Shown: positions 6,430-41,743 of the stretch, in pieces
How the letters are laid out: every line of letters begins with the position of its first letter
How positions within the stretch are numbered: position 1 is the first letter of the stretch
DNA from: Catellatospora sp. TT07R-123
GTDB lineage: Bacteria; Actinomycetota; Actinomycetes; Mycobacteriales; Micromonosporaceae
Assembly: GCF_018327705.1 (NCBI RefSeq)
Contig: NZ_BNEM01000001.1
Span: forward strand, 496,001 to 560,000
Direction of reading: 5' to 3'
Length of the DNA: 64,000 nt
The notes under the pieces: generated by a model
The model's database searches: none
Told to the model about the DNA's origin: nothing
Seen by the model: only the letters and a program-made list of their open reading frames with translations
Program-made: the position numbers and the translations under genes

Positions 6430-6439
6430 CGGCAGCGGC

Positions 6440-7752: not shown

Positions 7753-7761
7753 CCGAGAAGC

Positions 7762-8814: not shown

Positions 8815-9032
8815 GGCGGCGGGCCTCTCTCGCGGGGACCCGACGCGGATCCACGACGTGCACGGACTGGTCGAAGCCTGCCAGATCCGGGCGGACACAC
8901 GGTGCACCGGGGTCGCGACGGCGGCCGCACCTGGTCCACCCGTCGGCCCTTGCCGGGCCGCTGGACGCGATCGAGCAGCGCCTGCGCGCCACCGTCGCCG
9001 GAGGCGGGTCGCGCCCGTGAAATGATCGACCC

Positions 9033-25859: not shown

Positions 25860-26522
25860 TCAGTCGGTCAGGATCCCCGCCTGCGCCATGCCGTCGACCG
25901 CTCCGAGGTAGTGCTCCTCCAGCGCTTGGACCATCTCGTCGATGCCGCCCTTGCCGAAGACGTCCACGACCAGCTGGTGGCGGCGTACGGTTTCGACTAG
26001 GTCGATGTGCTGGCGGTCGATGGAGGAGCGCATGAGTGCCCCCATCTGCGCGTCCAGTGTCCGCCACAGTGAGCCGAGCCGGTTGCGGCCGGACGCGTCG
26101 ATGATGCAGGCGTGGAACTCCGTATCAAGGTCGATCATCGAGGCCACGTCGCCTTCCCGCGCGGCAGCGCCCATGCGGGCGACCACCGCCTGCATCTTGG
26201 CGACCATCTCCTGCCGCTCGCCGACGCTGCGGGCAGCGCCGGCCTCGAGCACGTAGCGTGCGTAGCAGGCGTCGCGGATGTCTTCGTACGCCATCCGCGT
26301 GACGACGCTGTGCCGCCTCGGCGAGATGTCGACCAGCCCGTCGAAGGACAGCTGGCGCAGCGCTTCCCGGATCGTGGAGCGGCTGACACCGAGTTCCTCG
26401 GCGAGGTTGGTCTCGATGAGTCGCTGCCCGGCGGGCAGCTCGTTGTTGAGGATCCGCCGGCGCAGCAGCAGATAGACGTTTTCCGGCAGGGACCGGTGCA
26501 CCACGGTCGCTGGATTCGTCAT
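25860..26522 (-). CDS. GntR-family regulator (FadR/FCD type), last gene of the 15-gene operon
   Basis: A 220-residue regulator. An N-terminal winged helix (residues about 10-75; RLIETNLAEELGVSRSTIREALRQL is the recognition region) and a C-terminal all-helical FCD domain (about 85-215) hold likely metal/ligand residues (DTEFHACIIDASGR, VRRHQLVVD). FCD GntR proteins often respond to small carboxylates and bind palindromes of the TTGTC-GACAA type. The perfect palindrome at the operon promoter (41687-41710) has exactly that core, so autoregulation of the whole operon is likely. The ATG at 26522 overlaps the upstream stop by four bases. Confidence 0.88.
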   Translation of the reverse strand: MTNPATVVHRSLPENVYLLLRRRILNNELPAGQRLIETNLAEELGVSRSTIREALRQLSFDGLVDISPRRHSVVTRMAYEDIRDACYARYVLEAGAARSVGERQEMVAKMQAVVARMGAAAREGDVASMIDLDTEFHACIIDASGRNRLGSLWRTLDAQMGALMRSSIDRQHIDLVETVRRHQLVVDVFGKGGIDEMVQALEEHYLGAVDGMAQAGILTD

Positions 26523-27352
26523 GGCCGGAAGTGTAGGCGGTCGAGGGTGAGCTGTGGAGCCGCGTCGCCGGTGAGCGAGACGGGCAGGTTGGCGGCCGGC
26601 GCGCACAGGATCGGCATGAGGCCGGGTCCGTGACCGGGCAGCGGGCTGCCGCCGTGCACGATCAGTCCGACAGTCCGGTATCCGCCCCGGTATCCGGTGT
26701 TGTGCCGCACGTCGAGGTCGTCGACGGCGACGAGGTCGCCCAGCCGCAGCCCGGCCGCCTCCGGGTCGTCCGGGGTGAGCTGGAGGTCGATGTCCCACAT
26801 CTGCGCCGGGCGGCCGATGCCGTTGCCGGCGACCCGCGACGGGAACACGGCCCGCACCGTGGCGTGGACCTGCCCGTCGCCGATCACCAGGGGCAGCAGG
26901 TCCAACGCGTCCGGGTCGGCGTTGAGCAGGTGCACGCCGGGCAGCTCGGCGCCCTGTCCCCGGCCGCGCACGACGATCGTGTCGCCGGGCACGAGCTGTG
27001 CCAGCGTCTCGTCGTCGAAGACGACGATGACACGGCCCTGCTCGCCGCGCTTGCCCAGCACGAAGCCCGGAGCGCCCGCCGCGGCGCCGGTGCGGACCAT
27101 GGCACGGTTGCCGAAGCACGCGAAGGCGGTCAGCGCGTGCCGGGCCGACTGGTCGGCGTGGCTGAGGGTGACTCCGGGGGCCACGTGGTCGGCGTCGTGG
27201 TCGAAGACGCCGTCGCCGATGTGGACGCCGAGCACGACGCCGCAGTCGCCCAGCGGCACGTACGGATGTCCGTCGGCGTCGACGAGGTATGGCGTCGACG
27301 GCATGGTGGGGGTCTCCACCACGCCGGTCAGGTTCACCGCGATCGGTGTCAC
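26519..27352 (-). CDS. DUF4438 protein, second paralogue
   Basis: A 277-residue protein of the DUF4438 family, whose function is unknown. It shares with the adjacent paralogue the GDCGVVLGVHIGDGVFDHDADHVAPGVTL region, the GN-x-VRTG-x-AAG block near residue 85, the VRGRGQGAEL turn and the LHF-type C-terminal end. There is no signal peptide. The GTG at 27352 overlaps the upstream stop (GTGA), and its own stop overlaps the gntR start, so it is translated as part of the coupled string. Tandem DUF4438 copies next to TldD/TldE suggest a heteromer or two related enzymes acting on the same imported compound; this is inference. Confidence 0.75.
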   Translation of the reverse strand: MTPIAVNLTGVVETPTMPSTPYLVDADGHPYVPLGDCGVVLGVHIGDGVFDHDADHVAPGVTLSHADQSARHALTAFACFGNRAMVRTGAAAGAPGFVLGKRGEQGRVIVVFDDETLAQLVPGDTIVVRGRGQGAELPGVHLLNADPDALDLLPLVIGDGQVHATVRAVFPSRVAGNGIGRPAQMWDIDLQLTPDDPEAAGLRLGDLVAVDDLDVRHNTGYRGGYRTVGLIVHGGSPLPGHGPGLMPILCAPAANLPVSLTGDAAPQLTLDRLHFRP

Positions 27353-28200
27353 AGGATTCCTCCCAGGCAGGCGTCGGGGTCGTCGACGAGATGGAACGCG
27401 TCGGCGGGACCGGTCAGGATGGTGCTCGGCCCCGGGCCGTGGCCGAACAGGCGGCAGTGGCCGGTGCTGATCACACCGATGGCCAGATGGCCGCGCCGGT
27501 AGCCGCGGCCGAAGCGGTGGTCGGCGTCCTCGATCGCGACGATGTCGCCGATGCGCAGGCGCTCCAGGCCCAGGGACAGGTCGTCCCCCTGCCCGGCGTA
27601 GGCGCCCATGAGGTCGGTGTTGGCGAATTCGGAGACCATGCCCGCACCCGCGCCGACTGCCGAAGCCGGGACCCGGGCGGCCACGCCGACCTCCAGCCGT
27701 CCGTCGGCACGGGTCCGCACGGGAAGCCGGGTCAGCAGGTCGGGATCGAGGTTCTTGGCCACGACCGCCGGGTGGTCCAGCAGCCTGAGGCCCTGGCCGC
27801 GGGCGGCGACGGTGACCTGGTCGCCGGTGCTGACCTCGGCGAGGTCGGCCTCGGCCAGGTCGACCAGCACGTAGGCGTGCTGGCCGATGACCTTGCCCTG
27901 CCGCCCGGCGGCCGGTCCGGTCCGGACCGTGACGATGTTGCCGACGCAGCTGAGGAACTGCAGCGCCATGTTGGCGCCTTCGCCGCGGGCGCGGACCGAC
28001 AGGCCCGGTTCGAGATGGTCGGCGGCGTAGCCGGTCGCCGGGTCGCCCGGGTGCACGCCGAGTGTCACCCCGCCCATGCCGGGCAGCAGGAACGGCTGCC
28101 CGTCGGCGTCGACCCGGTAGCCGTGCCGGTCGGCCAGCGCCGGCCACACCTCGCCGGCGAGGATCTGGGTGACCAGGCGGTCCGCGTTGGTTCGTATCAT
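27349..28200 (-). CDS. DUF4438 protein, first paralogue
   Basis: A 283-residue DUF4438-family protein, paralogous to its downstream neighbour: GVTLGVHPGDPATGYAADHLEPG near residue 45, CVGNIVTVRTGPAAG near 85, ARGQGLRLL near 135, EFANTDLMGAY near 190. A Gly-rich stretch resembles a KOW-like turn, but no catalytic motif is evident. The ATG at 28200 shares a base with the tldE stop (TGATG). Nothing in the family tells the reaction. Its fixed place after tldD/tldE points to a role in the same processing step. Confidence 0.75.
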   Translation of the reverse strand: MIRTNADRLVTQILAGEVWPALADRHGYRVDADGQPFLLPGMGGVTLGVHPGDPATGYAADHLEPGLSVRARGEGANMALQFLSCVGNIVTVRTGPAAGRQGKVIGQHAYVLVDLAEADLAEVSTGDQVTVAARGQGLRLLDHPAVVAKNLDPDLLTRLPVRTRADGRLEVGVAARVPASAVGAGAGMVSEFANTDLMGAYAGQGDDLSLGLERLRIGDIVAIEDADHRFGRGYRRGHLAIGVISTGHCRLFGHGPGPSTILTGPADAFHLVDDPDACLGGIL

Positions 28201-29579
28201 CACTGCTCCTCGATCGCGGCCGAGCCGAAGCGGAACCCGTGCCCGCGTACGGCGGGCGCGGTGACCGCGCCGTTCCACACGTTCATGACCGGCTGCGAGC
28301 GGCGGGCTGACCCGACGGCGTCGACGGTGGCGAGGAAGTCGAGGACCGAGTGGGTGAACCGGGCGCCGGCGACCGGTTCGGCGAGCCTGCCGTCGCGGAT
28401 CAGGAAGCAGCCGTCGCGGCTGACGCCGGTGATGGTGCCGGTCAGGCGGTCGACCAGCCGGGTGTACCAGAACCGCTGCACGTAGACGCCGTGCTCGACG
28501 CCGGCGATGAGGTCGGCCTCGGTGGCGTCGCCGGGGGCCATGACGACGTTCGCGGCGACCGGGGCGGGAGCCTGTTCGCGGGCGATGTGGGCATGGCCGG
28601 TGGAGGCGGTGCCGAGGAGGGCGGCGGTGGCGAGATCGGTCACCGCCTGTCCGACGACACCGCGGTCCAGCAGCGGGACACGCCGCTTGGGTGTTCCCTC
28701 CATGTCGAAGCCGATGGGCAGCCCGATCGTGGCGGTGGCGTCGTCGGCGACGGTGACCAGCGGCGAGGCGACCCGCTCGCCGCGCCGCCGGGCGACGAGC
28801 CCGACGCCGGCGGCGGCCAGCTCGCCGGAGAAGCCGACGTCCTCCAGGAACGTCAGCAGTTCCCCGACTGCTTGCGGGCCGAGCACGACGGTGTGCCGTC
28901 CGTCCGGGACCGGGACGCGGCCCTGGCCCGCGACCGCCTCGCCGATCGTGCGGTCGGCGGCGGCCGCGAGGCCGAGGGCGCCGCTGGAGCGGTGCAGGTC
29001 GACCCAGTGGGAGGTGCCGTCGGCGACCGCTGCGGTCAGCGAGCCGAGTGCCTCGGTGGCCACGGCGTGGTGGGCGGCGCCGGTGGAGGCGACGACGGCG
29101 ATCTGGGTGATCGCCCGGCCGAACATGCCGGCGGCGGTGCCGCCTGCGGCAGCGGCCGCGCGCATGGTCTGACCGGCGGCGACTGCCCGCGCGCCGGCGT
29201 CGAACGCCGCGGTGTCGTCGTGCCACAGCGCCACCTGGGGCAGTGGCGCCGGCTCGGAGGTCCGGGCCGTGCCGGGGGCGGCGCCCGGCCTGCGGGCCAT
29301 GGCTCGGGCGGCCTCGGTGGCCTTGCCCACGGCGGCCGCCAGGCCGCCCAGGGTGCCGACCGCGGCGCGCGCGGCGTGTCCGTCGACGATGGCACGGACC
29401 GTGTACTGGGTTTCGATGATGTCCTGCGGCTGGTGGATCCGGCCGTCGGCGAACCGGGTGTACTGCCCGGCCCGGCCCAGCAGGGTGATCTCGACAGCGT
29501 CGGCGGTGCCCGACGCCGCGGCCGTGCCGAGCCGGTCGAGCAGGCCGTCGAGGGACACCGGTGGGTGGAAGGCGGTCAT
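28200..29579 (-). CDS. TldE/PmbA-family metallopeptidase partner subunit
   Basis: A 459-residue member of the TldD/PmbA family, on the TldE side: it lacks the HExxxH motif and has the GFSGELAAAGVGLVARRRGERVASPLVTVADD core, the EGTPKRR strand and the TNVW-like tail NVWNGAV. TldD and TldE form a heterodimeric zinc protease that threads and cuts unfolded or modified peptides (known from microcin B17 maturation and CcdA turnover). The ATG at 29579 overlaps the tldD stop by one base (TGATG), typical of obligate partners. Confidence 0.85.
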   Translation of the reverse strand: MTAFHPPVSLDGLLDRLGTAAASGTADAVEITLLGRAGQYTRFADGRIHQPQDIIETQYTVRAIVDGHAARAAVGTLGGLAAAVGKATEAARAMARRPGAAPGTARTSEPAPLPQVALWHDDTAAFDAGARAVAAGQTMRAAAAAGGTAAGMFGRAITQIAVVASTGAAHHAVATEALGSLTAAVADGTSHWVDLHRSSGALGLAAAADRTIGEAVAGQGRVPVPDGRHTVVLGPQAVGELLTFLEDVGFSGELAAAGVGLVARRRGERVASPLVTVADDATATIGLPIGFDMEGTPKRRVPLLDRGVVGQAVTDLATAALLGTASTGHAHIAREQAPAPVAANVVMAPGDATEADLIAGVEHGVYVQRFWYTRLVDRLTGTITGVSRDGCFLIRDGRLAEPVAGARFTHSVLDFLATVDAVGSARRSQPVMNVWNGAVTAPAVRGHGFRFGSAAIEEQ

Positions 29580-31054
29580 CAGGCCACTCCGATCCGCAGG
29601 TCGCGTACCAGCATCGGGCTGGCGCCGTGGCTGAGGAAGCCCCATTGCTTGGGTTCGCCCTTGCCGCAGGGGTAGCCGAAGGAGCGGAACTCCGACGGCC
29701 CGGCCACGGCCTCGACCGAGCCCCAGAACTGCGGCGTCACACCGCCGTAGGAGAAGTTGCGCAGCAGCCGGCCGCGGCGTCCGCGTTTGACCTCGTAGGC
29801 GACCTCGGTGCCGAACTGGAAGTTGAGCCGCTGGTTGTCGATGGACCAGCTGCGGTTGTCGTCGATGTAGTAGCCGTCGCCCATCCGGTCGAGCAGGTCG
29901 TCGAGGCTGCCGCCGTCGCCGGGTTCCAGGAAGACGTGGGTGGAGAAGCACACCGGCAGGTAGGCCCAGCCGTCGGAGCGGGCGGCGCCGGTCAGGGCCA
30001 GGCCCGAGCGGGCGGCGGAGTCGCGGGTGGACAGGGTGTTGGCCACGATGCCGCGGTCGATGAGGGCGGCCCGGCGGGACGGCGTGCCCTCGTCGTCGAA
30101 GGCGAAGCTGCCGCGGGTGCCGGGCACGGTCGGGTCCGACGCGATCGTGACCGCGGCCGAGCCGTAGCGCAGCGAGCCGACGTCGGCGGCCCTGATGAAC
30201 GAGGTTCCGGCGTAGTTGGCCTCGTCGCCGAGGATCCGGTCGAGCTCCAGCGCGTGCCCGGCCGATTCGTGGATCTGGAGCGAGACCTGCTGGGCGCCGA
30301 TGACGACGTCGGCGAATCCGCGGGGGGCGGCCGGCGCGGTCAGCAGCGCGACGGCCTCCTCCCCCACCCGGGCGGCGTTGTCGTGCATGGCCAGGCTCGC
30401 CAGGTATTCCCAGCCCGCTCCGGCGGTGTTGCCGTGGAAGGAGTTGGGGTAGCTGCGCCGCTGTACGTCGCCGTGCCCGGCGGCGGTCACCACCAGCATC
30501 GCGCCGGTCTCCAGCAAGTGCTGGTGCTGGCGTGAGCCTTCGGTGTCGGCGTAGTGCCGGTGCTGGCGCTTCGCGTTGATCCCGGCCTGCCCGGCCGCGA
30601 CCAGCGCGGGCGCGCCTGCCTCCGCCAGCCAGCCGGCCAGCAGGCCGTGCCGGGTCGCGGTGTCGACGGCGAACGGGTCCTGGCCGACCTCCGTGGCGTA
30701 GCGTCCGCTGGACGGCTCGCGGGCAGGCAGGTCCACCCGTCTGCCGATGCCGGACATGGCCAGCGCGTCGGCGTGCGCCGCGCGGGCGGCGAGAGCGGCG
30801 TCGCCGACGGCGGTCAGCGGCCGGGCGGCGAAACCCCACTGGCCGTCGACGAGGACGCGCACGCCGATGCCGATGTTCTGCTCGATGCGCTCGTCGGGGT
30901 CGGCGCCGAGTTGGGCGTAGGAGCGCAGCTCCTCGCATTCGATGAGCCGGGCGTCGGCGAACTGGACCCGCCCGGCGAGGGTGTCCAGTGCCGTTTCCAG
31001 GATGGCGCGGGCTGCGGCGTCGTCGGCCAGCGTGCCCCAGTCGTGGGCGCTCAC
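29579..31054 (-). CDS. TldD-family zinc metallopeptidase, catalytic subunit
   Basis: A 491-residue catalytic subunit with the family zinc motif HExxxH (HESAGHALELD, near residue 260), the downstream EGTPSRRAALIDRG block and C-terminal CGKGEPKQWGFLSHG with the likely third-ligand Cys. In its class, TldD needs the non-catalytic TldE encoded next to it. The substrate is probably an imported or modified peptide, given the peptide-type ABC transporter in the operon. The GTG at 31054 overlaps the upstream stop by four bases. There is no signal peptide, so it acts in the cytosol. Confidence 0.87.
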   Translation of the reverse strand: MSAHDWGTLADDAAARAILETALDTLAGRVQFADARLIECEELRSYAQLGADPDERIEQNIGIGVRVLVDGQWGFAARPLTAVGDAALAARAAHADALAMSGIGRRVDLPAREPSSGRYATEVGQDPFAVDTATRHGLLAGWLAEAGAPALVAAGQAGINAKRQHRHYADTEGSRQHQHLLETGAMLVVTAAGHGDVQRRSYPNSFHGNTAGAGWEYLASLAMHDNAARVGEEAVALLTAPAAPRGFADVVIGAQQVSLQIHESAGHALELDRILGDEANYAGTSFIRAADVGSLRYGSAAVTIASDPTVPGTRGSFAFDDEGTPSRRAALIDRGIVANTLSTRDSAARSGLALTGAARSDGWAYLPVCFSTHVFLEPGDGGSLDDLLDRMGDGYYIDDNRSWSIDNQRLNFQFGTEVAYEVKRGRRGRLLRNFSYGGVTPQFWGSVEAVAGPSEFRSFGYPCGKGEPKQWGFLSHGASPMLVRDLRIGVA

Positions 31055-32172
31055 GCCTGCTCCAGCGGGAAGGAGGTCCAGGCCCGGTCGCGGAAGGACT
31101 TCTCGAACGCGTTGATGGTCTCCTGCACCAGGGCGCCCTGGGCGAAGTCGCCCTGGTTGGCGTCGGTGCCGGAGAGGATCTCGGTGGCGAAGTCGGCGCA
31201 GAGGTTGGAGTAGAACAGGAAGTCCCACGGTTCGCGGGAGTGTCCGCCTTCGGGGAAGAACTGCTGGGGGATCTCGCGTTCGACGAACTCGACCGAGTCC
31301 TTGGTGGCGGTCTTGATGGTCTGGCAGATGCCGAATTCCTCGACCAGCCGCACGATGATGGCGCCTTCGGAGCCGAAGATGCGGGCCTCGATACCGGGGA
31401 AGTTGCCGACGGTCACGTAGGAGGACTGGATCGAGGCCAGGACGCCGTTGTCGAACTCGGCGATCCACATGTCGCCGTCGTCGATGTTGAGGCGCTGCAT
31501 GGCGCCGGTGGCGCGGACGACGCGTTGGGGTACGAAGTTGCGCATGGTGCCGACGACGGAGGTCAGGTTGCCGCCGCTCCACTCGTGCATGATGTCGATG
31601 ATCGGGGCGCCGTAGCCCTCGATCGACGAGGTGACCAGCACGTTCGGGTCGGCGTCCGGGTCGACCTGGCGCATCGGGGTGGCGGGGTCGATCCACTGGC
31701 TGTTCTGCTCGTAGCCGTTGAAGATGTAGGGCGTGCCGACGAACCCGGCGTCGATGAGGCTCTTGGCGTACTGGACCGCGGGCGCGTAGCGGAACGTGAA
31801 GCCGAGCTTGGTCTTCAGGCCCTTGCTGCGGGCGAGTTCAGCCAGGGCGCGGGTCTGCCGGTTGTCGTGGTGGACGGGCTTCTCGCACAGGACGTGCTTG
31901 CCCGCGTCGAGGGCGGCTGCGGAGATCTCGAAGTGGGCGTGGTTGGCGGTGGCCACGTCGATCACGTCGATGTCGGGTGCGTCGAGCAGCTCGCGGTAGT
32001 CGGTGACCAGGCGGTCGACGCCGAAGTCGGCGCCGGCCTGGGCGAGGATGGCCGGGTCGGTGTCGGACAGGGCCACGACCTCGACGCGGGGGTCACGCTG
32101 CCAGCCGGGGATGTGGGCGCGCTGGGCCCAGCGGCCCGCACCGACGACGGCTACTCGCAGCTTGTCACTCAT
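31051..32172 (-). CDS. Gfo/Idh/MocA-family oxidoreductase
   Basis: A 373-residue NAD(P)-dependent oxidoreductase. The N-terminal Rossmann domain has GAGRWAQRAH (residues 11-20) and the family signature CEKPV (near 95); the C-terminal half is the alpha/beta dimerisation domain. Members oxidise or reduce sugar or cyclitol hydroxyls. Here the substrate is probably a fragment or decoration of the imported compound. The ATG at 32172 has GGAAGGAA upstream. The 35-base gap after the permease gene is one of the few non-overlapping joints of the operon. Confidence 0.85.
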   Translation of the reverse strand: MSDKLRVAVVGAGRWAQRAHIPGWQRDPRVEVVALSDTDPAILAQAGADFGVDRLVTDYRELLDAPDIDVIDVATANHAHFEISAAALDAGKHVLCEKPVHHDNRQTRALAELARSKGLKTKLGFTFRYAPAVQYAKSLIDAGFVGTPYIFNGYEQNSQWIDPATPMRQVDPDADPNVLVTSSIEGYGAPIIDIMHEWSGGNLTSVVGTMRNFVPQRVVRATGAMQRLNIDDGDMWIAEFDNGVLASIQSSYVTVGNFPGIEARIFGSEGAIIVRLVEEFGICQTIKTATKDSVEFVEREIPQQFFPEGGHSREPWDFLFYSNLCADFATEILSGTDANQGDFAQGALVQETINAFEKSFRDRAWTSFPLEQA

Positions 32173-32207
32173 GGGGGTTCCTTCCGGTTTTGCGGGGCGG
32201 GGGCGCA

Positions 32208-34045: not shown

Positions 34046-35049
34046 GCGGCGGTCCTCCCTTGCGGGTTCTGGTCACCGCTGGGCGCGGCGGCCGGGGCGG
34101 TGTCGGCGTGGTGGCACGCGGTCTGGTGTCCGGTCGGGCCGGCCAGCAGTTCCGGGCGCCGGCTGCGGCACACGTCGGTGGCCAGCGGGCAGCGCGGCGC
34201 GAAGGCGCAGCCGCGTACGGTGGCGCTGCCGGCCGGGGCTTCGCCGGCGACGATGCCGCGCCGGTGGCGGCGTCCCGCGCCGGGTTGCGGGATCGCGGCG
34301 AGCAGGGCCTGGGTGTAGGGGTGGCGGGGATGGGCGAACACGTCGGCGCTGGTGCCCAGTTCCACGATCCGGCCCTGGTACATGATCGCGACGTCGTCGG
34401 CGATGAACCGCAGGGTGGACATGTCGTGGGAGATGAACAGGTAGGCCAGGCCGTCGGCTTCCTGGAGGTCTTTGAGCAGGTTGAGGATCTGGGCGCGGAC
34501 CGAAACGTCCAGGGCGGAGACGGCCTCGTCGCAGACCAGCACCTGCGGTGCGACGGCGAGCGCGCGGGCGATGGAGACCCGTTGGCGCTGCCCGCCGGAC
34601 AGCTGGTGCGGGTAGCGGCCGGTGAACGCGGCGGGCAGGCCGACCCGGTCGAACAGTTCGCGGGTGCGGGTGATCTGGTCGGGGCGGGGCACCCCGGCCG
34701 CGGTGAGGGCTTCGGCGACGTTGTCGCCCGCGGTCAGCCGCGGGTTGAGCGAGTCGTAGGGGTCCTGGAAGACCATCTGCATGTGGCGGCGGAAGCGGCG
34801 CAGCGCGGCGCCGCGCAGGGTGGTGACCTCCCGTCCGGCGACGCGCACCGATCCGGCGGCCGGGTCGTGGACCCGCATCAGGGCGCGGGCGACGCTGCTC
34901 TTGCCGGAACCTGACTCGCCGGCCAGGCCGAGGGTGCGTCCGGCGGCGATGCTGAAGCTGACCGCGTCGACCGCGGTGTGGTGCCCGCGGTGGAGCAGTC
35001 CGCGGCGGCCATAGCGGACGGTCAGGTCTCGCACGGCGACGACGCTCAT
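34042..35049 (-). CDS. Peptide-type ABC transporter ATPase (DppF class)
   Basis: A 335-residue ATPase with Walker A GESGSGKSS (near residue 45), the Q-loop in MVFQDPYDSLNPR, signature LSGGQRQR, Walker B VLVCDEAVSALD and the switch His in ISHD. The C-terminal oligopeptide extension has the Cys cluster RGCAFAPRCPLATDVC seen in DppD/DppF proteins, which can hold an iron-sulfur cluster. It is coupled by ATGA overlaps on both sides. Confidence 0.9.
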   Translation of the reverse strand: MSVVAVRDLTVRYGRRGLLHRGHHTAVDAVSFSIAAGRTLGLAGESGSGKSSVARALMRVHDPAAGSVRVAGREVTTLRGAALRRFRRHMQMVFQDPYDSLNPRLTAGDNVAEALTAAGVPRPDQITRTRELFDRVGLPAAFTGRYPHQLSGGQRQRVSIARALAVAPQVLVCDEAVSALDVSVRAQILNLLKDLQEADGLAYLFISHDMSTLRFIADDVAIMYQGRIVELGTSADVFAHPRHPYTQALLAAIPQPGAGRRHRRGIVAGEAPAGSATVRGCAFAPRCPLATDVCRSRRPELLAGPTGHQTACHHADTAPAAAPSGDQNPQGRTAA

Positions 35050-36035
35050 CGGGTCGCCTCCTTCACGGCGGTGGTCAGGGGGAAGTGGCAGGCGGCGCTG
35101 GTCTGTGCGCCGGTGGGAGCCGGGGCCGGGGCCCGGGTGCGGCAGATGTCCCGGGCGTGGGGGCACCGGTCGGCGAAAGCGCAGGAGCCGGTCGGCACGT
35201 CGCCGAACGGGGGCGTGCCGGGGATGGCGGGCAGGCGGCGGGGCAGCTCGCCGTCCAGGCGCGGGATCGAGTCCAGCAGCGCCCTGGTGTACGGATGCGA
35301 CGGCGCCGCCACGATGTCGTCGGTCGGTCCGGTCTCGACGACCTGCCCGGCGTACATGACCAGGATGCGGTCGCAGAAGCTGGAGATGACGCCCAGGTCG
35401 TGGCTGACCAGGATCGTCGCGGTGCGATGGCGTTCGGTGAGCTCGTCGAGCAGGTCGAGGACCTGGGCCTGGACGGTGACGTCGAGGGCGGTGGTGGGTT
35501 CGTCGGCGATGATGAGTTTCGGGGTGCAGGCGGCGGCGACGGCGATGCAGACGCGCTGGCGCATGCCGCCGCTGAACGCGTGCGGGTAGTCGCGCAGGCG
35601 GCGCTCGGCGTCGGCGATACCGACCAGGCGCAGCAGCCGGACGGCCTCGGCGCGGGCGGCGGCCCGGCCGAGCCCGCGGTGGCGCCGCAGTCCCTCGGTG
35701 AGCTGGGTGCCGATGCGCAGCAGCGGGTTGAGGCTGGACATGGGGTCCTGGAACACCATGGCGATGTCGGCGCCGCGCCAGGCGGCCAGCCGGGCGGGGT
35801 CGAAGCCGAGGACGTCCTGGCCGGCGAAGCGGATGCGGCCGCCGACGGTGGCGGTGCTCGGCAGCAGCCGCATCACGGCCTGGGCGGTGACGGACTTGCC
35901 GGAGCCGGACTCGCCGACGATCCCGACCCGCTCCCCCGCGTCCACGCGCAGGCTGACCCCGCGGACCGCGGCGGTGCGCGTGCCCTGGCGGGTGAAGTCG
36001 ATCGTGAGGTCGTCGACTTCGAGAATGGCTGTCAT
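35046..36035 (-). CDS. Peptide-type ABC transporter ATPase (DppD class)
   Basis: A 329-residue ATPase with Walker A GESGSGKSVTAQ (near residue 40), FQDPMSSLNPLLRIG Q-loop, signature FSGGMRQR, Walker B LIIADEPTTALD and switch His VSHD. The C-terminal extension includes the Cys motif GSCAFADRCPHARDIC. It is the first gene after the 86-base gap that follows the binding-protein gene, where a strong hairpin probably lowers its expression relative to the binding protein. Confidence 0.9.
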   Translation of the reverse strand: MTAILEVDDLTIDFTRQGTRTAAVRGVSLRVDAGERVGIVGESGSGKSVTAQAVMRLLPSTATVGGRIRFAGQDVLGFDPARLAAWRGADIAMVFQDPMSSLNPLLRIGTQLTEGLRRHRGLGRAAARAEAVRLLRLVGIADAERRLRDYPHAFSGGMRQRVCIAVAAACTPKLIIADEPTTALDVTVQAQVLDLLDELTERHRTATILVSHDLGVISSFCDRILVMYAGQVVETGPTDDIVAAPSHPYTRALLDSIPRLDGELPRRLPAIPGTPPFGDVPTGSCAFADRCPHARDICRTRAPAPAPTGAQTSAACHFPLTTAVKEATR

Positions 36036-36068
36036 CGAAGTTCCTCGGTGTCGCAGGGGTCGAGGGGT

Positions 36069-36113
36069 GGCGGTGCGGGGCGCGGGAGGAGGCAGGACGC
36101 GTCCCGCACCGCC
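36069..36113 (-). promoter_or_regulatory. Intercistronic hairpin between binding-protein and ATPase genes
   Basis: GGCGGTGCGGG-A-CGCG pairs with CGCG-C-CCCGCACCGCC (15 bp, one A-C mismatch), around a 13-base loop. It lies 8 bases after the stop of the substrate-binding protein. Such stems stabilise upstream mRNA or partly terminate transcription, and are common where a binding protein is needed in excess. Confidence 0.65.
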
Positions 36114-36121
36114 GGGGAAGG

Positions 36122-37765
36122 TCAGCGGCTGGCTGCGCCGTCGGTCTTCCAGTAGTTGGTCATGTCCCAGCCCCAGATCGGCTGGGAGTGGTAGCCGCCG
36201 ACGGACTTGCCGAAGACCTCGGTCTTGGAGCCGTAGTAGAGCGGCACCACCGGGTTGTCGGCGAGCATCTTGGCGGTGGCCTGGGCGTAGATGGTGTTGG
36301 CCTCGGCGACGGTCGGTGCCGCCAGCGCCTTGTTCACCAGGTCGTCGACGTCCTTGTTGCAGTAGAACGAGTAGTTCTGTCCGCCCGGGACCGCCGAGGC
36401 GCAGGACAGCAGCGCCTGGTAGAAGTCACTGCCGTCGGGGTAGTCGGCGACCCAGAAGGTGAGGGTCATCGGCGCCTTGCCGGGGGTGGCGGCCAGGTCG
36501 AAGAAGGCGCTCTGCTGGATCGGCTGCGCGTCGACCTTGATACCGATCTTGCCGAGGTCCTGCTGGAGCTGGGGCAGCAGCGCCGTCCACGGGGAGGTGT
36601 TCCAGGAGTACATCGTGGTGGTGAAGCCGTCGGGGTAGCCGGCCTCGGTGAGCAGCTGCTTAGCCTTGGCGATGTCCTGGTCGTGGACGAGCTTGTCGCT
36701 GGTGTAGCCGGTGATGCCCGGCGGCAGGTACTCGTTGGCGGCCTGGCCCTGGCCCGCGACGAGCTTGAGCAGGAAGGCCCGGTCGACGGCGTACGAGACG
36801 GCCTCGCGCACCTTCGGGTTGTCGAACGGCTTCATCTGCGTGTTCATCGTGAGGTAGTAGGTCGACGGCTTCACGATCGTCTTGGTCTGCGCCTTGAGCG
36901 AGGCGTCGTTGCCGACCTGCAGGTAGTCGGCGGCCGGGATCGGGTCGCCCATCAGGTCGAGCTGGCCCTTCTGCAGCTCCAGCAGCTGCACGTGCGGGTC
37001 GATGCCGAGCTTCTCGACGACCTTGTCGACGTAGGGCCGCGGGCTGTCCCAGTACTTGGCGTTGCGGTTGACCACGATCTCGGCGCCGGGCGTGAAGTGG
37101 TCGAGCACGAACGGCCCGGAGCCGACGGGCTTGCTCGCGGTGCCCTTCTCGATGATCGACGCGTGCGGCATCGCCAGGACGTACTTGAACGAGCTGTTGG
37201 GGGCGGTCAGCTCGATCTTCACGGTGGTGTCGTCGACGGCGGTGATGCCGGCGAGTTCACCCGCCGGGTTCTTGGCGTAGTCGGCGGCACCCTTGACCCC
37301 GGTCCAGAAGCTCGCCACCGGCGACTTCGTGGCCGGGTCGAGGATGCGGTCGAGGGAGTAGACGACGTCGGCGGCGGTGACGGGCTTGCCGTCGGTGAAC
37401 GTCATCCCGGCGCGCAGCTTGATGGTGTAGGTGAGGCCGTCGGTGCTGACCTGCGGCAGGTCGGCCGCGGCCTGGGCGGCCAGGTCCATGGTGTCGCCGG
37501 TGTAGTCGAAGAGCCGGTCGTACATCATGCGCATGTTGTTCCAGCAGGTGGCGTCGTAGCACACCGCCGGGTCGAACGTCTTGGGGTCGCTCTTGTAGCC
37601 CACGGTCATCGTGCCGCCGTGGCGGGGTTCGGTCGAGCCGGTGCCCGGGTCGACGGTCGCCGGGCTGTTGCCCGCGCAGGCGGCGGTCACCGCCAGCGTG
37701 CTGGCGAGCAGGGCGCCCAGCGCGGCCCGGCGGAGGGGGACCCGCCGGAGGGGGTTGCGTTTCAT
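36122..37765 (-). CDS. Family 5 extracellular solute-binding lipoprotein (peptide ABC transporter)
   Basis: A 547-residue lipoprotein receptor for the ABC importer. The signal peptide ends in the lipobox VTAAC (Cys30). A periplasmic-binding-protein type 2, family 5 fold follows (TMTVGYKSDPKTFDPAVCYD; LTYTIKLRAGMTFTDGKPVTAADVVYSLDRI near residue 115). Family members bind peptides, nickel or glycosides; the specificity cannot be read directly. GGAG lies 8 bases before the ATG at 37765. The gene follows the aminotransferase by 16 bases. A hairpin after it suggests higher expression than the membrane components. Confidence 0.9.
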   Translation of the reverse strand: MKRNPLRRVPLRRAALGALLASTLAVTAACAGNSPATVDPGTGSTEPRHGGTMTVGYKSDPKTFDPAVCYDATCWNNMRMMYDRLFDYTGDTMDLAAQAAADLPQVSTDGLTYTIKLRAGMTFTDGKPVTAADVVYSLDRILDPATKSPVASFWTGVKGAADYAKNPAGELAGITAVDDTTVKIELTAPNSSFKYVLAMPHASIIEKGTASKPVGSGPFVLDHFTPGAEIVVNRNAKYWDSPRPYVDKVVEKLGIDPHVQLLELQKGQLDLMGDPIPAADYLQVGNDASLKAQTKTIVKPSTYYLTMNTQMKPFDNPKVREAVSYAVDRAFLLKLVAGQGQAANEYLPPGITGYTSDKLVHDQDIAKAKQLLTEAGYPDGFTTTMYSWNTSPWTALLPQLQQDLGKIGIKVDAQPIQQSAFFDLAATPGKAPMTLTFWVADYPDGSDFYQALLSCASAVPGGQNYSFYCNKDVDDLVNKALAAPTVAEANTIYAQATAKMLADNPVVPLYYGSKTEVFGKSVGGYHSQPIWGWDMTNYWKTDGAASR

Positions 37766-37781
37766 CTCTTTGACTCCATCT

Positions 37782-38960
37782 TCACTGAGGGGTGGTGGGA
37801 CGGATGTTCAGGAAGCCGGCCAGGCCGGTGAGGCCGGCGTCGATCTCCTCCGGCCGGGCGGCCAGGGACAGGCGCAGGCGGGACCGGCCCTGGCTGCCGA
37901 AGGCGACGCCCGGAGCCAGCGCGACACCCCGTTCGGCGAGCAGGTCCAGCGCGAACGCGGCGGTGTCGGCCACGGACGGGACGGCCAGCCAGAGGTAGAA
38001 GGCGCCCGCCGGGCGTACGGCGCTCAGGCCCAGGGCCGCGGCCCGGTCGACGGCGGTGTCGCGACGTGACCGGTACGCCTGGCGCATGTCGGCCACGCAG
38101 TCCTGCGGGCCGGCGAGCGCGGCCGTGCCCGCGTACTGGGTGGGGGTGCTCACGCAGGAGGCTGTCGCCTCCAGCACCCGGGCGAGCGCGGCGGCGAGCC
38201 GGTCGTGTCCGGGCCCGCTGGTCACGGCGTAGCCGAGCCGCCAGCCGGTCATGGCATAGCTTTTGGACAGGGAGAACACGGTGACGGCGGGGGTGTCCGG
38301 AGCGGCCGCGGCGAAGGTGACGGCCGGTTCGTCGAGCCACAGCTGGTCGTAGCACTCGTCGGAGATGACGGTCAGCCCGTGCCGGTCCGCCCATTGCCCC
38401 AGCTCGGCGAGCTGGGCGGCGTTCCACTGGTAGCCGACCGGGTTGGCCGGGGAGTTGATGAGGATCGCCCGGGTGCGGGGTCCGACCAACGTGTCGAGGT
38501 GCTCGTAGTCCGGGCTGAAGCCGTCGTGTTCCACCAGCCGGTAACCGCGGGCGGTGGCGCCCAGCATCGTCGCGATGGTGGAGAAGTTCGTCCAGCCGGG
38601 GTCGGGGACGAGGATCTCGTCGCCGGCCGACAGCAGCGCCCGGTAGGCGGCGGTCAGGCCGCCGACCCCGCCCGCGGTGACGACGACGTGGTCGGCGGCG
38701 GCGGTCAGGCCGTTGTCGCGGGCCAGCTTGTCCACGACGGCGTCGCGCAGTGCGGGGACGCCGACGCTCGGGCTGTAGCGGGTGCGGCCGTCACGGGCGG
38801 CGGCGTGCCCCGCCTCGACGATGTGTCCGGGGGTGGCGAAGTCCGGCTCGCCGAGTTCCAGGTGGATGGCACCGGGGTGCCGCCAGGCGGCGTTGGCCAG
38901 GGCGCGGATGCCCGACGCCGGGGTCGCGGCGACCTCGGCGGAGATCAGCGGGGCGGTCAT
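37782..38960 (-). CDS. PLP-dependent aminotransferase, class I/II
   Basis: A 392-residue fold-type I aminotransferase. The PLP-binding Lys is in SLSKSYAMTGWRLGY (near residue 238); the cofactor-binding SPANPVGY and SDECYDQLW (near 180-210) and the carboxylate-binding Arg in RLRLSLA (near 370) are present. It would transaminate an amino acid released by the operon's peptidases; the side-chain preference is not clear. The start overlaps the upstream SDR stop by four bases (ATGA), which fixes ATG 38960. Confidence 0.88.
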   Translation of the reverse strand: MTAPLISAEVAATPASGIRALANAAWRHPGAIHLELGEPDFATPGHIVEAGHAAARDGRTRYSPSVGVPALRDAVVDKLARDNGLTAAADHVVVTAGGVGGLTAAYRALLSAGDEILVPDPGWTNFSTIATMLGATARGYRLVEHDGFSPDYEHLDTLVGPRTRAILINSPANPVGYQWNAAQLAELGQWADRHGLTVISDECYDQLWLDEPAVTFAAAAPDTPAVTVFSLSKSYAMTGWRLGYAVTSGPGHDRLAAALARVLEATASCVSTPTQYAGTAALAGPQDCVADMRQAYRSRRDTAVDRAAALGLSAVRPAGAFYLWLAVPSVADTAAFALDLLAERGVALAPGVAFGSQGRSRLRLSLAARPEEIDAGLTGLAGFLNIRPTTPQ

Positions 38961-39730
38961 GTCATGCTCCGCATCAGGCCGCCGTCGCAGGACAGCAGGC
39001 TGGCCGTGACGTAGGACGACTCGGGACCGGCCAGGAAGCCGACCAGCGCCGCGAACTCTTCGGGCCGGCCGTAGCGTCCGGCGGGGATCGTGGCGATGCT
39101 GGCCTCCCGTACGGCTGCCGGATCGGTGCCGGCGCGGCGGGCGGCGGCCGCGTCGAGCTCGGCGACGCGCGGGGTGTCGATGCGGCCGGGCACGACGCCG
39201 TTGACGGTCACCCCGTCGGCGGCGACCTGCCGGCCGGCCGTCTTGATCCAGGCGGCCAGCGCGGCCCGGCCGCTGTTGGAGTAGGTCAGGTGCGGCAGCG
39301 GCTCGCGTACCCCGGAGGACAGCACTGCCACGATCCGGCCGTAGCCACGCTCGCGCATGCCGGGCAGCAGCCGGGTCGCCAGGTCGATCGGGGTGACGGT
39401 GAGCAGTTGCAGCGCGCTGCGCCAGGTGTCGGCGTCGGTCTGGTCGGCGGTCGCCGGGGGTGGGCCGCCGGCGTTGAGGACGCAGGTGTCGATGTGGTCG
39501 AAGACCTCCCGGGCCCGGTCGGCGACGATGCTCGCGGCCTCGGGCGCGGCGGCGTCGGCGGCGACGGTGTACACCGTCACGCCGTACCGCTCGCGCAGGG
39601 TGGCGGCGATCGGGTCGAGCCGGGCGGTGCTGCGCGACCACAGCAGCAGATCGGTTCCGGCGGCGGCGAGGCGCTCGGCGACGGCGGCGCCGAGTCCGGC
39701 GCTGGCGCCGCCCACCACGGCGGTGGTCAC
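38957..39730 (-). CDS. SDR-family oxidoreductase with altered active site
   Basis: A 257-residue short-chain dehydrogenase/reductase: the cofactor motif GGASAGLGAAVAE (TGxxxGxG class) at the N-terminus, NAGG near residue 90, a Ser in VLSSGVREP near 138, and PGRIDTPR near 185. The usual YxxxK reads YSNSG followed by Arg, so the catalytic Lys is missing at its normal place, as in a known divergent SDR subgroup. Activity as a dehydrogenase is therefore uncertain. The GTG at 39730 overlaps the upstream stop (GTGA). Confidence 0.85.
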   Translation of the reverse strand: MTTAVVGGASAGLGAAVAERLAAAGTDLLLWSRSTARLDPIAATLRERYGVTVYTVAADAAAPEAASIVADRAREVFDHIDTCVLNAGGPPPATADQTDADTWRSALQLLTVTPIDLATRLLPGMRERGYGRIVAVLSSGVREPLPHLTYSNSGRAALAAWIKTAGRQVAADGVTVNGVVPGRIDTPRVAELDAAAARRAGTDPAAVREASIATIPAGRYGRPEEFAALVGFLAGPESSYVTASLLSCDGGLMRSMT

Positions 39731-40635
39731 GGCAGCTCCAGCGGTGCGATCGCGGGCGTGAGCCCGACGCGGGCAAGGACGTCGTCGAGTTCGGCCAGGG
39801 TCGCCGGGTCGGGCAGCGGGTTGAGCGCCCGAGTACGGGCGGTGGCCAGCACCCCGCGGCGGCGCAGGACCTCCTTGCGGATGCTCAGTCCGACCCGGAC
39901 CTGGCCCTCGAACACGAGGTAGGGCAGGAACCGGTCGTTGAGCCGTGCCGCCAGGGCGGAGTCGCCGTTCTCGAAGGCGACCCGGATCGCTTTGAGGATC
40001 TCGGGGTAGGCGAAGCCGGTCATCGTTCCGGCCGCGCCGCGGCGCAGTTCGGAGTACACGCTGACGCCGCCGAGGCCGCCGAAGACGGTCAGGTCGGGTC
40101 GCTGGGCCAGCAGCCGACCGATCTTGGGCGGCGTCGGCGGATCCTCGAGTTTGACCACGGTGCTGCCGGCCGCGTCCAAGGCCGCCAGCAGCGCCGACAC
40201 GGGCAGCGTCACACCGGTGGCGGCGGGTTCGTCCTGCACGATCACCGGGATCGGGCAGTCGCCGACGGCCGAGCGGTAGAAGGCCGCGATCTGGTCGGTG
40301 TCCTTGAGCAGCGCGGGCGCGGCGACCATGACGGCGGCGGCGCCGCTGTCGGCGGCGCGGGCGGCGTTGGCGCGCACCACGGCCGGAGCCGGGGCCGAGC
40401 AGCCGACCGCGAAGGGGATGCGTCCCGCCGCGGCCTGCGAGACGGTGGTCAGGACGGTGTCCCGTTCGGTGGCGGTGAGGTCGGCGACCTCACCCATCAC
40501 GCCGAGGATGGTGATGCCGTCGACACCCCACCCGATCGCCGCGTCGACGATGCGGCGCAGGCTTTCGCGGTCGACCTCACCCGCCTCGGTGAACGGGGTG
40601 GGGCTGATGTACCAGGTTCCGGCCAGTGTCGTCAT
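39727..40635 (-). CDS. Dihydrodipicolinate synthase-like (DapA family) lyase/synthase
   Basis: A 302-residue class I aldolase-fold enzyme. The Schiff-base Lys is in VVKLEDPP (near residue 160) and the pyruvate-binding GVMGE motif near 47. The catalytic Tyr position is changed: IVQDEP replaces the YN-x-P of true DHDPS, so it is unlikely to be the lysine-biosynthesis enzyme. Relatives cleave or form 2-oxo acids by aldol chemistry, fitting a catabolic operon. The ATG at 40635 lies one base after the upstream stop. Confidence 0.85.
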   Translation of the reverse strand: MTTLAGTWYISPTPFTEAGEVDRESLRRIVDAAIGWGVDGITILGVMGEVADLTATERDTVLTTVSQAAAGRIPFAVGCSAPAPAVVRANAARAADSGAAAVMVAAPALLKDTDQIAAFYRSAVGDCPIPVIVQDEPAATGVTLPVSALLAALDAAGSTVVKLEDPPTPPKIGRLLAQRPDLTVFGGLGGVSVYSELRRGAAGTMTGFAYPEILKAIRVAFENGDSALAARLNDRFLPYLVFEGQVRVGLSIRKEVLRRRGVLATARTRALNPLPDPATLAELDDVLARVGLTPAIAPLELP

Positions 40636-40636
40636 G

Positions 40637-41668
40637 TCAGTACCCCAGCTCCCGGCGGTAGAGGTTGCGCAGGCTGCCGCCGTCGAGGAAGCGGCGCAGG
40701 TTGTCGCGGAACAGGTCGGTGATGGCGGCGTTCTCGGTGTCGACGGTGGACGCCGAGTGGGGCGAGACCAGCACGTTGTCGAGGTCCCACAGCGGCGAGT
40801 CGGCCGGCAGCGGCTCGGTGGCGAACACGTCCAGGGCCGCGCCGGCCAGCGCCCCGCCGCGCAGGGCTTCGATGAGGGCGGGTTCGTCGACGAGCTGGCC
40901 GCGGCCGATGTTGACCAGGATCGCGCCGGGCTTCAGCCGGGCGATCAGCGCGGCGTCGAGCAGGCCTTCGGTCAGCGGGGTCAGCGGGGTGCACAGGACG
41001 AGGACGTCGGTGTGCGGCAGGAGCTCGGCCAGGTCGGCGGTGGTGCGCACGGCGGCCGCGCCGTCGAGGTCGTAGCTGCCGCCGGGACGTCCCACGGCGG
41101 TCACGTGCGTGCCCAGGGCGGCGAAGCTCGCGACCACCTGCCGGCCGATGCCGCCGAGTCCGACGACGGTCACGGTGCGACCGGCCAGTCGTGCGGTCGT
41201 GTAGCGCTGCCAGCGGTGTGCGCTCTGCTGGGCGCGCAGGTGCGGCAGGCCCTTGATGAAGTGGAGCGCGCCGGTGACCGCGAACTCCGCCAGCGGCACG
41301 GCGTGGATGCCGGCGGCGGTCGTGAACGTGATGTCGGTGCGGTCCAGGCCGGTGCGCTGGACGAATGCGCCGATGCCGGCGCTGGTGGCCTGGACCCAGC
41401 GCAGGTTCGGAGCGCGTTGCGGCAGCTGGGCCGGGGCCTGCCAGTCGAAGTCGAAGGCGACGTCGGCGGCGGCCAGTGCCCTGTCCCAGCGGGACTGCTC
41501 AGCGGCGGTGAGGTCGCGGGGCGTGCCGGTGTGGTCGCAGGCGTATCGCGGCCGCGGAAGCAGATCCGGTTCGTAGATCACGTCGACGGCGGGGTCGACG
41601 GCGGCGATCTGTTCGACCAGGTCAGGTTCGAGATAAGTGGCGATGAGGGTGCCGAGCCGGTGGGACAT
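40637..41668 (-). CDS. D-2-hydroxyacid dehydrogenase, first gene of the 15-gene operon
   Basis: A 343-residue NAD(P)-dependent D-2-hydroxyacid dehydrogenase: the Rossmann GLGGIGRQV (near residue 168) and the full catalytic set Arg (VNIGRGQLVDE), Glu (DVFATEPLP) and His (VSPHSAS). It interconverts a 2-oxo acid and a D-hydroxy acid; the deaminated product of the operon's aminotransferase is a logical substrate. I choose ATG 41668 because a TATGGT box ends exactly 6 bases before it, indicating a leaderless message. An in-frame ATG at 41737 would place translation across the promoter palindrome. Confidence 0.87.
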   Translation of the reverse strand: MSHRLGTLIATYLEPDLVEQIAAVDPAVDVIYEPDLLPRPRYACDHTGTPRDLTAAEQSRWDRALAAADVAFDFDWQAPAQLPQRAPNLRWVQATSAGIGAFVQRTGLDRTDITFTTAAGIHAVPLAEFAVTGALHFIKGLPHLRAQQSAHRWQRYTTARLAGRTVTVVGLGGIGRQVVASFAALGTHVTAVGRPGGSYDLDGAAAVRTTADLAELLPHTDVLVLCTPLTPLTEGLLDAALIARLKPGAILVNIGRGQLVDEPALIEALRGGALAGAALDVFATEPLPADSPLWDLDNVLVSPHSASTVDTENAAITDLFRDNLRRFLDGGSLRNLYRRELGY

Positions 41669-41674
41669 GATCGA

Positions 41675-41710
41675 ACCATAGGCCTTCTGCCGATTGTCGA
41701 CAATCGGCAG
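41675..41710 (-). promoter_or_regulatory. Leaderless promoter covered by a perfect 24-bp palindromic operator
   Basis: On the minus strand, TTGTCG (41703-41698), a 17-base spacer and TATGGT (41680-41675) form the promoter, and the ATG of the first operon gene follows 6 bases later. A perfect 24-bp palindrome (41687-41710; half-site CTGCCGATTGTC) covers the -35 box and most of the spacer. The core ATTGTC-GACAAT is a typical FCD-GntR target, and the operon's last gene encodes such a regulator. Confidence 0.8.
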
Positions 41711-41718: not shown

Positions 41719-41743
41719 TTTTTTGCCTGCTGGGCAATTTTTT
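41719..41743. promoter_or_regulatory. Two T6/A6 tracts upstream of the operon promoter
   Basis: T6 runs at 41719-41724 and 41738-41743 (A6 on the transcribed side) lie about 20 and 40 bases upstream of the -35 box. They flank the short inverted repeat TTGCC/GGCAA. In this GC-rich DNA they could be an UP element or a bend. Read on the plus strand they also look like a small intrinsic terminator, but no plus-strand gene enters here. Confidence 0.4.

What the first reader, a model, noticed from the sequence alone, without database searches (positions are those of the whole stretch)
25860..41668. Fifteen-gene coupled operon joining a peptide ABC importer, TldD/TldE and twin DUF4438 proteins to amino-/oxo-acid enzymes
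Seen: 15 same-strand genes, most joined by overlaps of 1 or 4 bases, from a single promoter at 41.7 kb to a gntR gene. Established: TldD/TldE cut unfolded or modified peptides; family 5 binding proteins with DppBCDF-type components import peptides. Inference: an unusual peptide or amino-acid conjugate is imported, cleaved by TldDE, processed by the two DUF4438 proteins, and its residue passed through aminotransferase, hydroxyacid dehydrogenase, DapA-like lyase, SDR and Gfo/Idh steps. I know of no described pathway with this gene set, and DUF4438 has no known function.
Basis: partly seen in the sequence, partly recalled or inferred. Interest (0 to 1): 0.8.

Follow-up and report, generated by a model that had tools for sequence, protein, structure and literature searches.

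The report
Peptide-uptake operon with twin mystery proteins
Fifteen bacterial genes that seem to be switched on and off together at one DNA site probably import and dismantle an unidentified peptide-like compound, and comparing them across species gives testable clues to a protein family of unknown function (DUF4438).

Summary
In detail: 15 minus-strand genes, 41668 to 25860, 10 of 14 joints overlapping by 1 or 4 bases. A palindrome (41686-41709) lies just before the first gene; its 14-base core occurs exactly once in the 9.17-Mb genome. A motif built from such sites finds sites before the same genes in rearranged clusters left out of training.

Of 18 actinobacterial genomes with an intact DUF4438 pair, tldD/tldE lies with it in 14, and a 2-hydroxyacid dehydrogenase gene in 17 of the 17 whose contigs reach. 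Operon-type tldD occurs in 8 of 300 family genomes, exactly those with the intact pair. Two Chloroflexota genomes carry the dehydrogenase, twin DUF4438, Gfo, GntR, family-5 binding protein and tldDE together. So tldDE is linked but dispensable; DUF4438 pair plus dehydrogenase is the core.

New: in all 30 pairs examined one copy keeps H62/E64/H108/H254, the other has lost E64 and H62 or H108, suggesting active plus degenerate subunits. The substrate is unknown.

The parts
41686..41709 (.). 24-base perfect palindrome, proposed operator of the GntR protein
   Evidence: core unique in genome at 0 mismatches; similar sites before hdh in 8 other genomes and in rearranged clusters
41675..41703 (-). 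possible promoter TTGTCG-17-TATGGT, read by eye
   Evidence: not listed by the consensus scan
40637..41668 (-). D-isomer-type 2-hydroxyacid dehydrogenase (hdh)
   Evidence: PF02826 6e-51
39727..40635 (-). DapA-superfamily lyase, nearest solved relatives 3DZ1 and L-2-keto-3-deoxyarabonate dehydratase
   Evidence: PF00701
38957..39730 (-). short-chain dehydrogenase/reductase
   Evidence: PF13561, PF00106
37782..38960 (-). class I/II aminotransferase
   Evidence: PF00155 4e-61
36122..37765 (-). family-5 solute-binding protein
   Evidence: PF00496 1e-92; nearest solved 8UPI 1.5e-109
35046..36035 (-). DppD-type ABC ATPase
   Evidence: PF00005 + PF08352
34042..35049 (-). DppF-type ABC ATPase
   Evidence: PF00005 + PF08352
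33134..34045 (-). DppC-type permease
   Evidence: PF00528 + PF12911
32208..33134 (-). DppB-type permease
   Evidence: PF00528 + PF19300
31051..32172 (-). Gfo/Idh/MocA oxidoreductase
   Evidence: PF01408 + PF22725
29579..31054 (-). TldD-type metalloprotease subunit (HESAGH at 262, PCGKG Cys at 463)
   Evidence: PF19289, PF01523; motifs
28200..29579 (-). TldE-type subunit without HExxxH
   Evidence: PF19289 7e-42
27349..28200 (-). DUF4438 copy 1 (D1), keeps H62/E64/H108/H254
   Evidence: PF14505 + PF20999
26519..27352 (-). DUF4438 copy 2 (D2), E64 to A and H108 to R
   Evidence: PF14505 + PF20999
25860..26522 (-). GntR-family regulator, FCD type
   Evidence: PF07729 + PF00392

Best explanation
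A single GntR/FCD-controlled catabolic regulon for uptake and breakdown of an unidentified peptide-like, amine-bearing compound. Proposed working: the GntR protein, last gene of its own operon, binds the palindrome over the likely -35 element and is released by a pathway acid (inferred from the FCD domain). The family-5 binding protein and DppBCDF import the compound (inferred from family). Where the compound carries a bond that ordinary peptidases do not cut, the TldD/TldE metalloprotease opens it (metal-site motif shown, activity inferred). The DUF4438 pair acts on the released unit as a hetero-oligomer in which D1 supplies the reactive residues H62/E64/H108/H254 and D2 is a degenerate partner (residue pattern shown; oligomer and catalysis inferred). 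The 2-hydroxyacid and Gfo dehydrogenases, with optional SDR, aminotransferase and a DapA-like dehydratase or aldolase, carry the carbon skeleton into central metabolism (inferred).
For: Same 15-gene order in 7 other genomes of two families. One operator, exact once in the genome, found by a held-out motif before SBP/hdh, tldD, SDR/dapA-like and a second Gfo gene in rearranged clusters (the tldD, SDR/dapA and second-Gfo sites score only slightly above the best shuffle). Operon-type TldD in exactly the 8 of 300 family genomes with an intact DUF4438 pair. hdh beside the pair in 17 of 17 reachable actinobacterial clusters, and Hdh or Ldh_2 in 8 of 8 Chloroflexota pairs. Transporter swapped for another family-5 system in Humibacillus, G839 and G720 (34% DppB, 28-29% SBP) rather than lost. 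TldD metal-site motifs as in E. coli TldD (PMC5810440, passages). Residue split in 30 of 30 pairs.
Against: No substrate, no expression data, no activity. 4 of 18 actinobacterial clusters lack tldDE and 10 of 18 do not show DapA+SDR+aminotransferase, so the full pathway drawn is not needed for the core. G704 and G751 show no operator site and no gntR relative in short stretches. The binding protein has a serine where DppA-type proteins carry the arginine that I recall as binding the peptide C-terminus (alignment; residue role recalled), which speaks against a plain dipeptide. Shared ancestry inflates co-occurrence. H62/E64/H108/H254 were not shown to meet in space.
Confidence: 0.55

Rival explanations
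1. The imported compound is not a peptide but an amino acid-sugar conjugate (opine-like or Amadori-like). The Gfo, SDR and DapA-like enzymes handle the sugar acid, and TldD/TldE is a later addition for an amide-bearing version.
For: One to three Gfo/Idh genes per cluster; DapA-like protein nearest to 3DZ1 and L-2-keto-3-deoxyarabonate dehydratase; family-5 binders also include agrocinopine and AgaA proteins (hits); tldDE missing in 4 of 18.
Against: The binding protein is much closer to peptide-type 8UPI and DppA than to opine binders (1.5e-109 and 3e-53 against 2.3e-37 for AgaA and about 1e-14 for agrocinopine binders); Chloroflexota clusters bring M14, AstE-type and amidohydrolase genes.
Confidence: 0.25
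2. A module for recycling or scavenging cell-wall (murein-type) peptides, with TldD/TldE in the place of the D-aminopeptidase of other dpp operons.
For: Dpp-type importer plus peptidase; a TldE/TldD pair next to the importer in 15-gene clusters. The dpp comparison is recalled.
Against: No LdcA, M55 or muropeptide-specific domain among the 15 genes; rare and patchy (9 of 300 in the family, 1 of 396 in the phylum draw), unlike a housekeeping recycling route; does not explain the dehydrogenases.
Confidence: 0.08
3. A biosynthetic (RiPP or other natural product) cluster in which TldD/TldE trims a precursor.
For: TldD/TldE pairs are known in microcin B17 maturation (PMC5810440, passages) and the family in lincosamide and other actinobacterial clusters (PMC4351081, passages).
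Against: None of the 15 proteins has a RiPP-enzyme domain in Pfam; the set is an importer, an FCD regulator and catabolic-type enzymes. Short precursor ORFs were not searched for.
Confidence: 0.06
4. Two separate functions (a peptide importer with TldDE, and a hydroxyacid/DUF4438 route) that merely share an operon.
For: Clusters without tldDE, and clusters with a non-orthologous transporter.
Against: They reassemble in different orders under one operator in several families and again in Chloroflexota; operon-type TldD never appeared without the pair in 300 family genomes.
Confidence: 0.1

Closest known systems
E. coli TldD/TldE metalloprotease (microcin B17 processing; PMC5810440, passages read)
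   Same: Adjacent TldD and TldE; TldD with HExxxH and a late cysteine in PCGKG; TldE without HExxxH
   Different: Sits in an importer/oxidoreductase operon under an FCD regulator; separate from the genome's other pair, whose TldD is 45% identical
DppABCDF-type dipeptide importers
   Same: Family-5 binding protein, two permeases, two ATPases with oligo_HPY
   Different: Nearest solved binder is 8UPI, not DppA; serine in the place of DppA's recalled carboxylate-binding arginine
TM1086 of Thermotoga maritima (PDB 3DCL, 3N99), the DUF4438 fold
   Same: D1 model superposes with TM-score 0.92-0.93; same H62/E64/H108/H254 residues in the alignment
   Different: TM1086-like genes elsewhere are single copies in mixed neighbourhoods; here an unequal pair in a regulon
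FCD-GntR autoregulated catabolic operons (general knowledge)
   Same: FCD regulator in the operon; palindrome just before the first gene
   Different: No described operon with this gene set was found in the library searched

Membership tests
TldD/TldE metalloprotease | TldD with HExxxH plus late Cys ligand; TldE without the motif | tested here: met
   Window plus 7 relatives: HExxxH and PCGKG in 8 of 8 TldD, HExxxH in 0 of 8 TldE
TldD/TldE metalloprotease | heterodimer with peptidase activity | not testable with these tools
   needs protein
TldD equivalog (NCBIfam) | score above curated cut-off of TldD equivalogs | tested here: not met
   99.4 of 635 bits and 76 of 513 bits; a divergent subfamily, not orthologous by this rule
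Family-5 peptide ABC importer | SBP_bac_5 + two BPD permeases + two oligo_HPY ATPases in one operon | tested here: met
Family-5 peptide ABC importer | residues binding peptide amine (Asp) and carboxylate (Arg) in DppA (roles recalled) | tested here: inconclusive
   Asp column kept (ADYPD against GDNGD), Arg column is Ser, in the alignment with 5F1Q
DUF4438 | PF14505 and PF20999 over cut-off; TM1086 fold | tested here: met
   for both copies; fold for D1 only
FCD-GntR autoregulated operon | FCD regulator and palindromic operator at the operon's start | tested here: met
   binding itself not testable
DapA (4-hydroxy-tetrahydrodipicolinate synthase) | score above the dapA equivalog cut-off | tested here: not met
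   71.5 of 206.15 bits
RiPP biosynthetic cluster | a modification enzyme domain in the cluster | tested here: not met
   none in Pfam tables of the 15 proteins
RiPP biosynthetic cluster | precursor peptide gene | not tested
   short ORFs not examined

The most novel reading that the evidence does not exclude
DUF4438 is a new class of enzyme with a fold so far known only from TM1086. In several phyla it has repeatedly split into an active and a degenerate subunit, and in Actinomycetota and Chloroflexota that pair, with a 2-hydroxyacid dehydrogenase, is the heart of an undescribed pathway for a peptide-like compound; TldD/TldE adds a second active/degenerate pair for one class of substrates.
Probability: 0.42. 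Interest if true: 0.78.

Novelty: new variant of a known kind. Interest (0 to 1): 0.6.

Why it matters
TM1086 has had a crystal structure since 2008 (date), and no paper of the library searched names DUF4438. This operon gives the family partners, a regulator, a candidate operator, four residues to mutate and a growth phenotype to look for. It also ties a divergent TldD/TldE subfamily, a family studied mainly for peptide-toxin processing, to what looks like nutrient catabolism.

Tried and rejected
Viral contigs for D1 relatives: 26 pattern stretches, none a relative. Single-sequence fold of D1: pLDDT 34, discarded; a 41-row alignment gave 92.7. A known relative of the DUF4438 fold: only TM1086 chains reached E 0.001; the next match, BesA, had E 0.017 and TM-score 0.16. 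A shared neighbour of single-copy DUF4438: none found; neighbours are mixed (MFS, adenosine deaminase, aminotransferase, tRNA ligase and others). The idea that the phosphonate gene at 24118-25716 belongs to the operon: rejected; it lies 143 bases after gntR and was not found by tblastn in the stretches fetched from the 18 other genomes. The weak phnR match of the GntR protein (85.2 of 271.5 bits) was not used. Literature: DUF4438, 0 papers; TM1086, 7 papers, listing only, one of them a crystallisation-methods paper (PMC2661377), the others apparently about other things; 8UPI, 0 from 2023 on; TldD+TldE+operon+ABC transporter+GntR, 0; aminoserine (a recalled ligand guess for 8UPI), 0; Mesorhizobium AP09 (recalled guess), 4, nothing relevant by listing; TldD with peptide-catabolism terms, 0. 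These searches cover open-licence PMC papers only. My first form of the residue rule (E64 and H108 lost together) failed in 5 of 6 new pairs and was widened to E64 plus H62 or H108.
Full report
WHAT IS THERE. The window lies in a 9.17-Mb, two-contig genome. Same-family genomes share contig sizes and places with records named Asanoa, Hamadaea, Dactylosporangium and Paractinoplanes, so the family is Micromonosporaceae by inference. On the minus strand from 41668 to 25860 lie hdh, dapA-like, SDR, aminotransferase, SBP, dppD, dppF, dppC, dppB, gfo, tldD, tldE, DUF4438 copy 1 (D1), copy 2 (D2) and gntR. Ten of 14 joints overlap, 7 by 4 bases and 3 by 1; the gaps are 1, 16, 86 and 35 bases. Starts were chosen by position. 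The genome has a second tldD/tldE-type pair; its TldD is 45% identical to this one.

THE SWITCH. A perfect 24-base palindrome lies at 41686-41709, before the ATG at 41668. Read by eye, TTGTCG (41703-41698), 17 bases, TATGGT (41680-41675) could be the promoter; the consensus scan did not list it. The core GATTGTCGACAATC occurs exactly once in the genome; with up to 2 mismatches there are 12 places, against 6 for the reversed control. Sites with 12 to 14 of 14 bases lie before hdh in the window and 8 other genomes. A matrix from those 9 was run on stretches not used to build it. Best places: G888, before SBP (21.4 bits), before tldD (16.4) and before a second Gfo gene (14.6); G839, between hdh and SBP (21.2) and between a DapA-like and an SDR gene (16.2); G720, between SBP and hdh (21.6 and 18.4); two Humibacillus genomes, between dppF and an SDR gene (27.7 and 23.0; 21.8 and 21.0); an Acidimicrobiaceae genome, between hdh and SBP (20.1). 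The highest of 30 shuffles (blocks of three bases) was 14.3 to 17.2 over these stretches, so the weaker G888 and G839 sites are near the noise. G704 and G751 show no site. One operator follows these genes through rearrangement; I take this as the strongest sign that they serve one process.

WHO TRAVELS WITH WHOM. PF14505 is above cut-off in 1 of 396 genomes drawn from the phylum, the window's own; in 9 of 300 of the family; in 7 of 200 of the family of Streptosporangium carneum, each with two copies; and in 18 of 350 of the Chloroflexota draw. The genome-contig scan gave 29 loci, several from the same genomes. Actinobacterial genomes with an intact pair: 18, the window counted; a 19th, G589, keeps only gntR and a broken D2 and was left out of the counts. 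Among the 18: tldD and/or tldE beside the pair in 14 (in G695 only the end of tldE is on that contig; in G888 tldDE stands beyond gntR as a separate unit); not seen in G839, G720, G704 and G751, whose draft genomes hold no TldD closer than 36%, G839 none at all; hdh in 17 of 17 whose contigs reach (G488's does not); gfo in 15; window-type gntR in 15; close DapA, SDR and aminotransferase together in 8. G720's contig ends inside D2, and G704's is 5.4 kb, so some absences may be gaps. Order and parts vary: the Acidimicrobiaceae cluster has no DapA, SDR or aminotransferase in the stretch held; in Humibacillus, G839 and G720 the transporter is another family-5 system (SBP 28-29%, DppB 34-36%).

RECIPROCAL TEST. 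Searched with the window TldD, the same 300 family genomes give 8 with a match below 1e-170 (82-100% identity); the next best is 5.6e-108. The 8 are exactly those with an intact DUF4438 pair. Fisher p is 6e-15, overstated because genomes are kin. The ten other members of the window's genus in the draw have neither.

ANOTHER PHYLUM. Of the 18 Chloroflexota genomes 7 have two copies; an eighth pair (L052, G700) came. In G1190 one strand carries Gfo, Hdh (45%), the two DUF4438 genes, two Gfo, GntR-FCD, a family-5 binding protein, TldD (56%) and TldE (43%); G1176 is alike with an SDR before GntR and TldD 58%, TldE 47%. TldD there keeps HESCGH and PCGKG. G1044, G1052 and G1140 share Gfo-Hdh-pair-Gfo-Gfo, but their contigs end within 3 kb. 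G954 has Hdh (34%), Ldh_2, aminotransferase-like, GntR and amidohydrolase genes. G699 has Gfo, DppBC, SBP, an epimerase, GntR, the pair, a glyoxalase-like gene, Ldh_2, an aminotransferase, an AstE-type deacylase, an amidohydrolase and an M14 carboxypeptidase; G700 has Ldh_2 and aminotransferase. Neither G699 nor G700 has any TldD match; G954 was not searched. So 8 of 8 Chloroflexota pairs and 17 of 17 reachable actinobacterial pairs have a 2-hydroxyacid-type dehydrogenase nearby, if Ldh_2 is counted, which is my choice. As a contrast, 13 single-copy loci and 4 of the 11 new single-copy Chloroflexota loci gave no hdh hit; many of these contigs are short, and Ldh_2 was not looked for systematically.

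THE DUF4438 PAIR. In a tree of 47 sequences actinobacterial D1 and D2 form separate groups, and the Chloroflexota and the fused Aminicenantes copies lie elsewhere (fusion). One clade for all degenerate copies is rejected (AU p 0.0002), as is one clade for all second copies (0.0004); the groups were named after the tree was seen, and long branches are flagged. In 11 single-copy rows H62, E64, H108 and H254 do not vary (the partial L054 and L060 were left out). All 18 actinobacterial pairs have one copy with all four and one with E64 changed to A, S or M and H108 to R, keeping H62 (H254 is beyond the contig end in G720's D2). In the four Aminicenantes-type pairs and in L050 and L052 one copy keeps all four and the other has lost all four. 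I then looked at new sequences: 11 of 11 new single-copy genomes keep the four; in 6 of 6 new pairs one copy keeps them and the other lacks H62 and E64. My first rule, E64 and H108 lost together, held in 1 of those 6. The rule as stated is thus partly after the fact, and many pairs are close kin. By invariant H/C columns the contrast is modest in actinobacteria (D1 keeps 5 of 7, D2 4 of 7 in most rows) and stronger elsewhere (5 against 2; 5 against 0). D1's model (pLDDT 92.7) matches only TM1086 in the PDB at E 0.001.

OTHER ENZYMES. TldD has the metal-site motifs described for E. coli (PMC5810440, passages) but is far below NCBIfam's TldD cut-offs, so it is a divergent subfamily. The DapA-like protein fails the dapA cut-off and aligns best with 3DZ1 and L-2-keto-3-deoxyarabonate dehydratase, sharing QDxP and a lysine column with them; that this lysine is the Schiff-base residue is recalled. 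The binding protein's nearest solved relative is 8UPI. None of this fixes the substrate.

VERDICT. The gene set is real, recurs across families and phyla in different orders, and looks regulated as one. The most useful result is a testable proposal for DUF4438: an enzyme family that works here as an active/degenerate pair beside a 2-hydroxyacid dehydrogenase.

Noticed in passing
window 24118-25716 (-): A fusion of TmpA-like and TmpB-like domains (6NPB 3.5e-90, 6NPA 1.4e-42; PF02668 + PF01966), 143 bases after gntR; looks like 2-trimethylaminoethylphosphonate (or related phosphonate) degradation in one protein.
   Followed up: partly
window 41723-41737: A second inverted repeat (TTGCCTGCTGGGCAA) upstream of the proposed operator; L062, L064 and L065 have a similar TTGC...GCAA dyad at the same place by eye. 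May bind a second regulator.
   Followed up: no
L030 (G589) 8305-9599: An eroded operon: gntR and part of D2 with a stop remain, D1 and the other genes were not found in the 19.9 kb.
   Followed up: no
L027 (G482) 6385-7853: tldD is matched in two overlapping pieces, possibly a frameshift or a sequencing error.
   Followed up: no
L055 4818-6812; also L056, L057, L058: Two DUF4438 domains fused in one ORF of about 660 residues, with a hydrophobic N-terminus in L055 that could be a signal sequence.
   Followed up: partly
L050 997-20521: A Chloroflexota DUF4438-pair cluster with M14 carboxypeptidase, AstE-type deacylase, amidohydrolase and Ldh_2 in place of TldDE and Hdh.
   Followed up: partly
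L099 4504-5361 (-): A DUF1028 gene (PF06267) directly after the DUF4438 pair in G751, which lacks tldDE; perhaps another amide hydrolase.
   Followed up: no
L046 3984-11849; L051: Single-copy DUF4438 beside NadB/NadC-type, nickel-insertion (LarC-type) and, in L046, glutamine cyclotransferase genes; L051 shares the first two neighbours. Unexplained.
   Followed up: no
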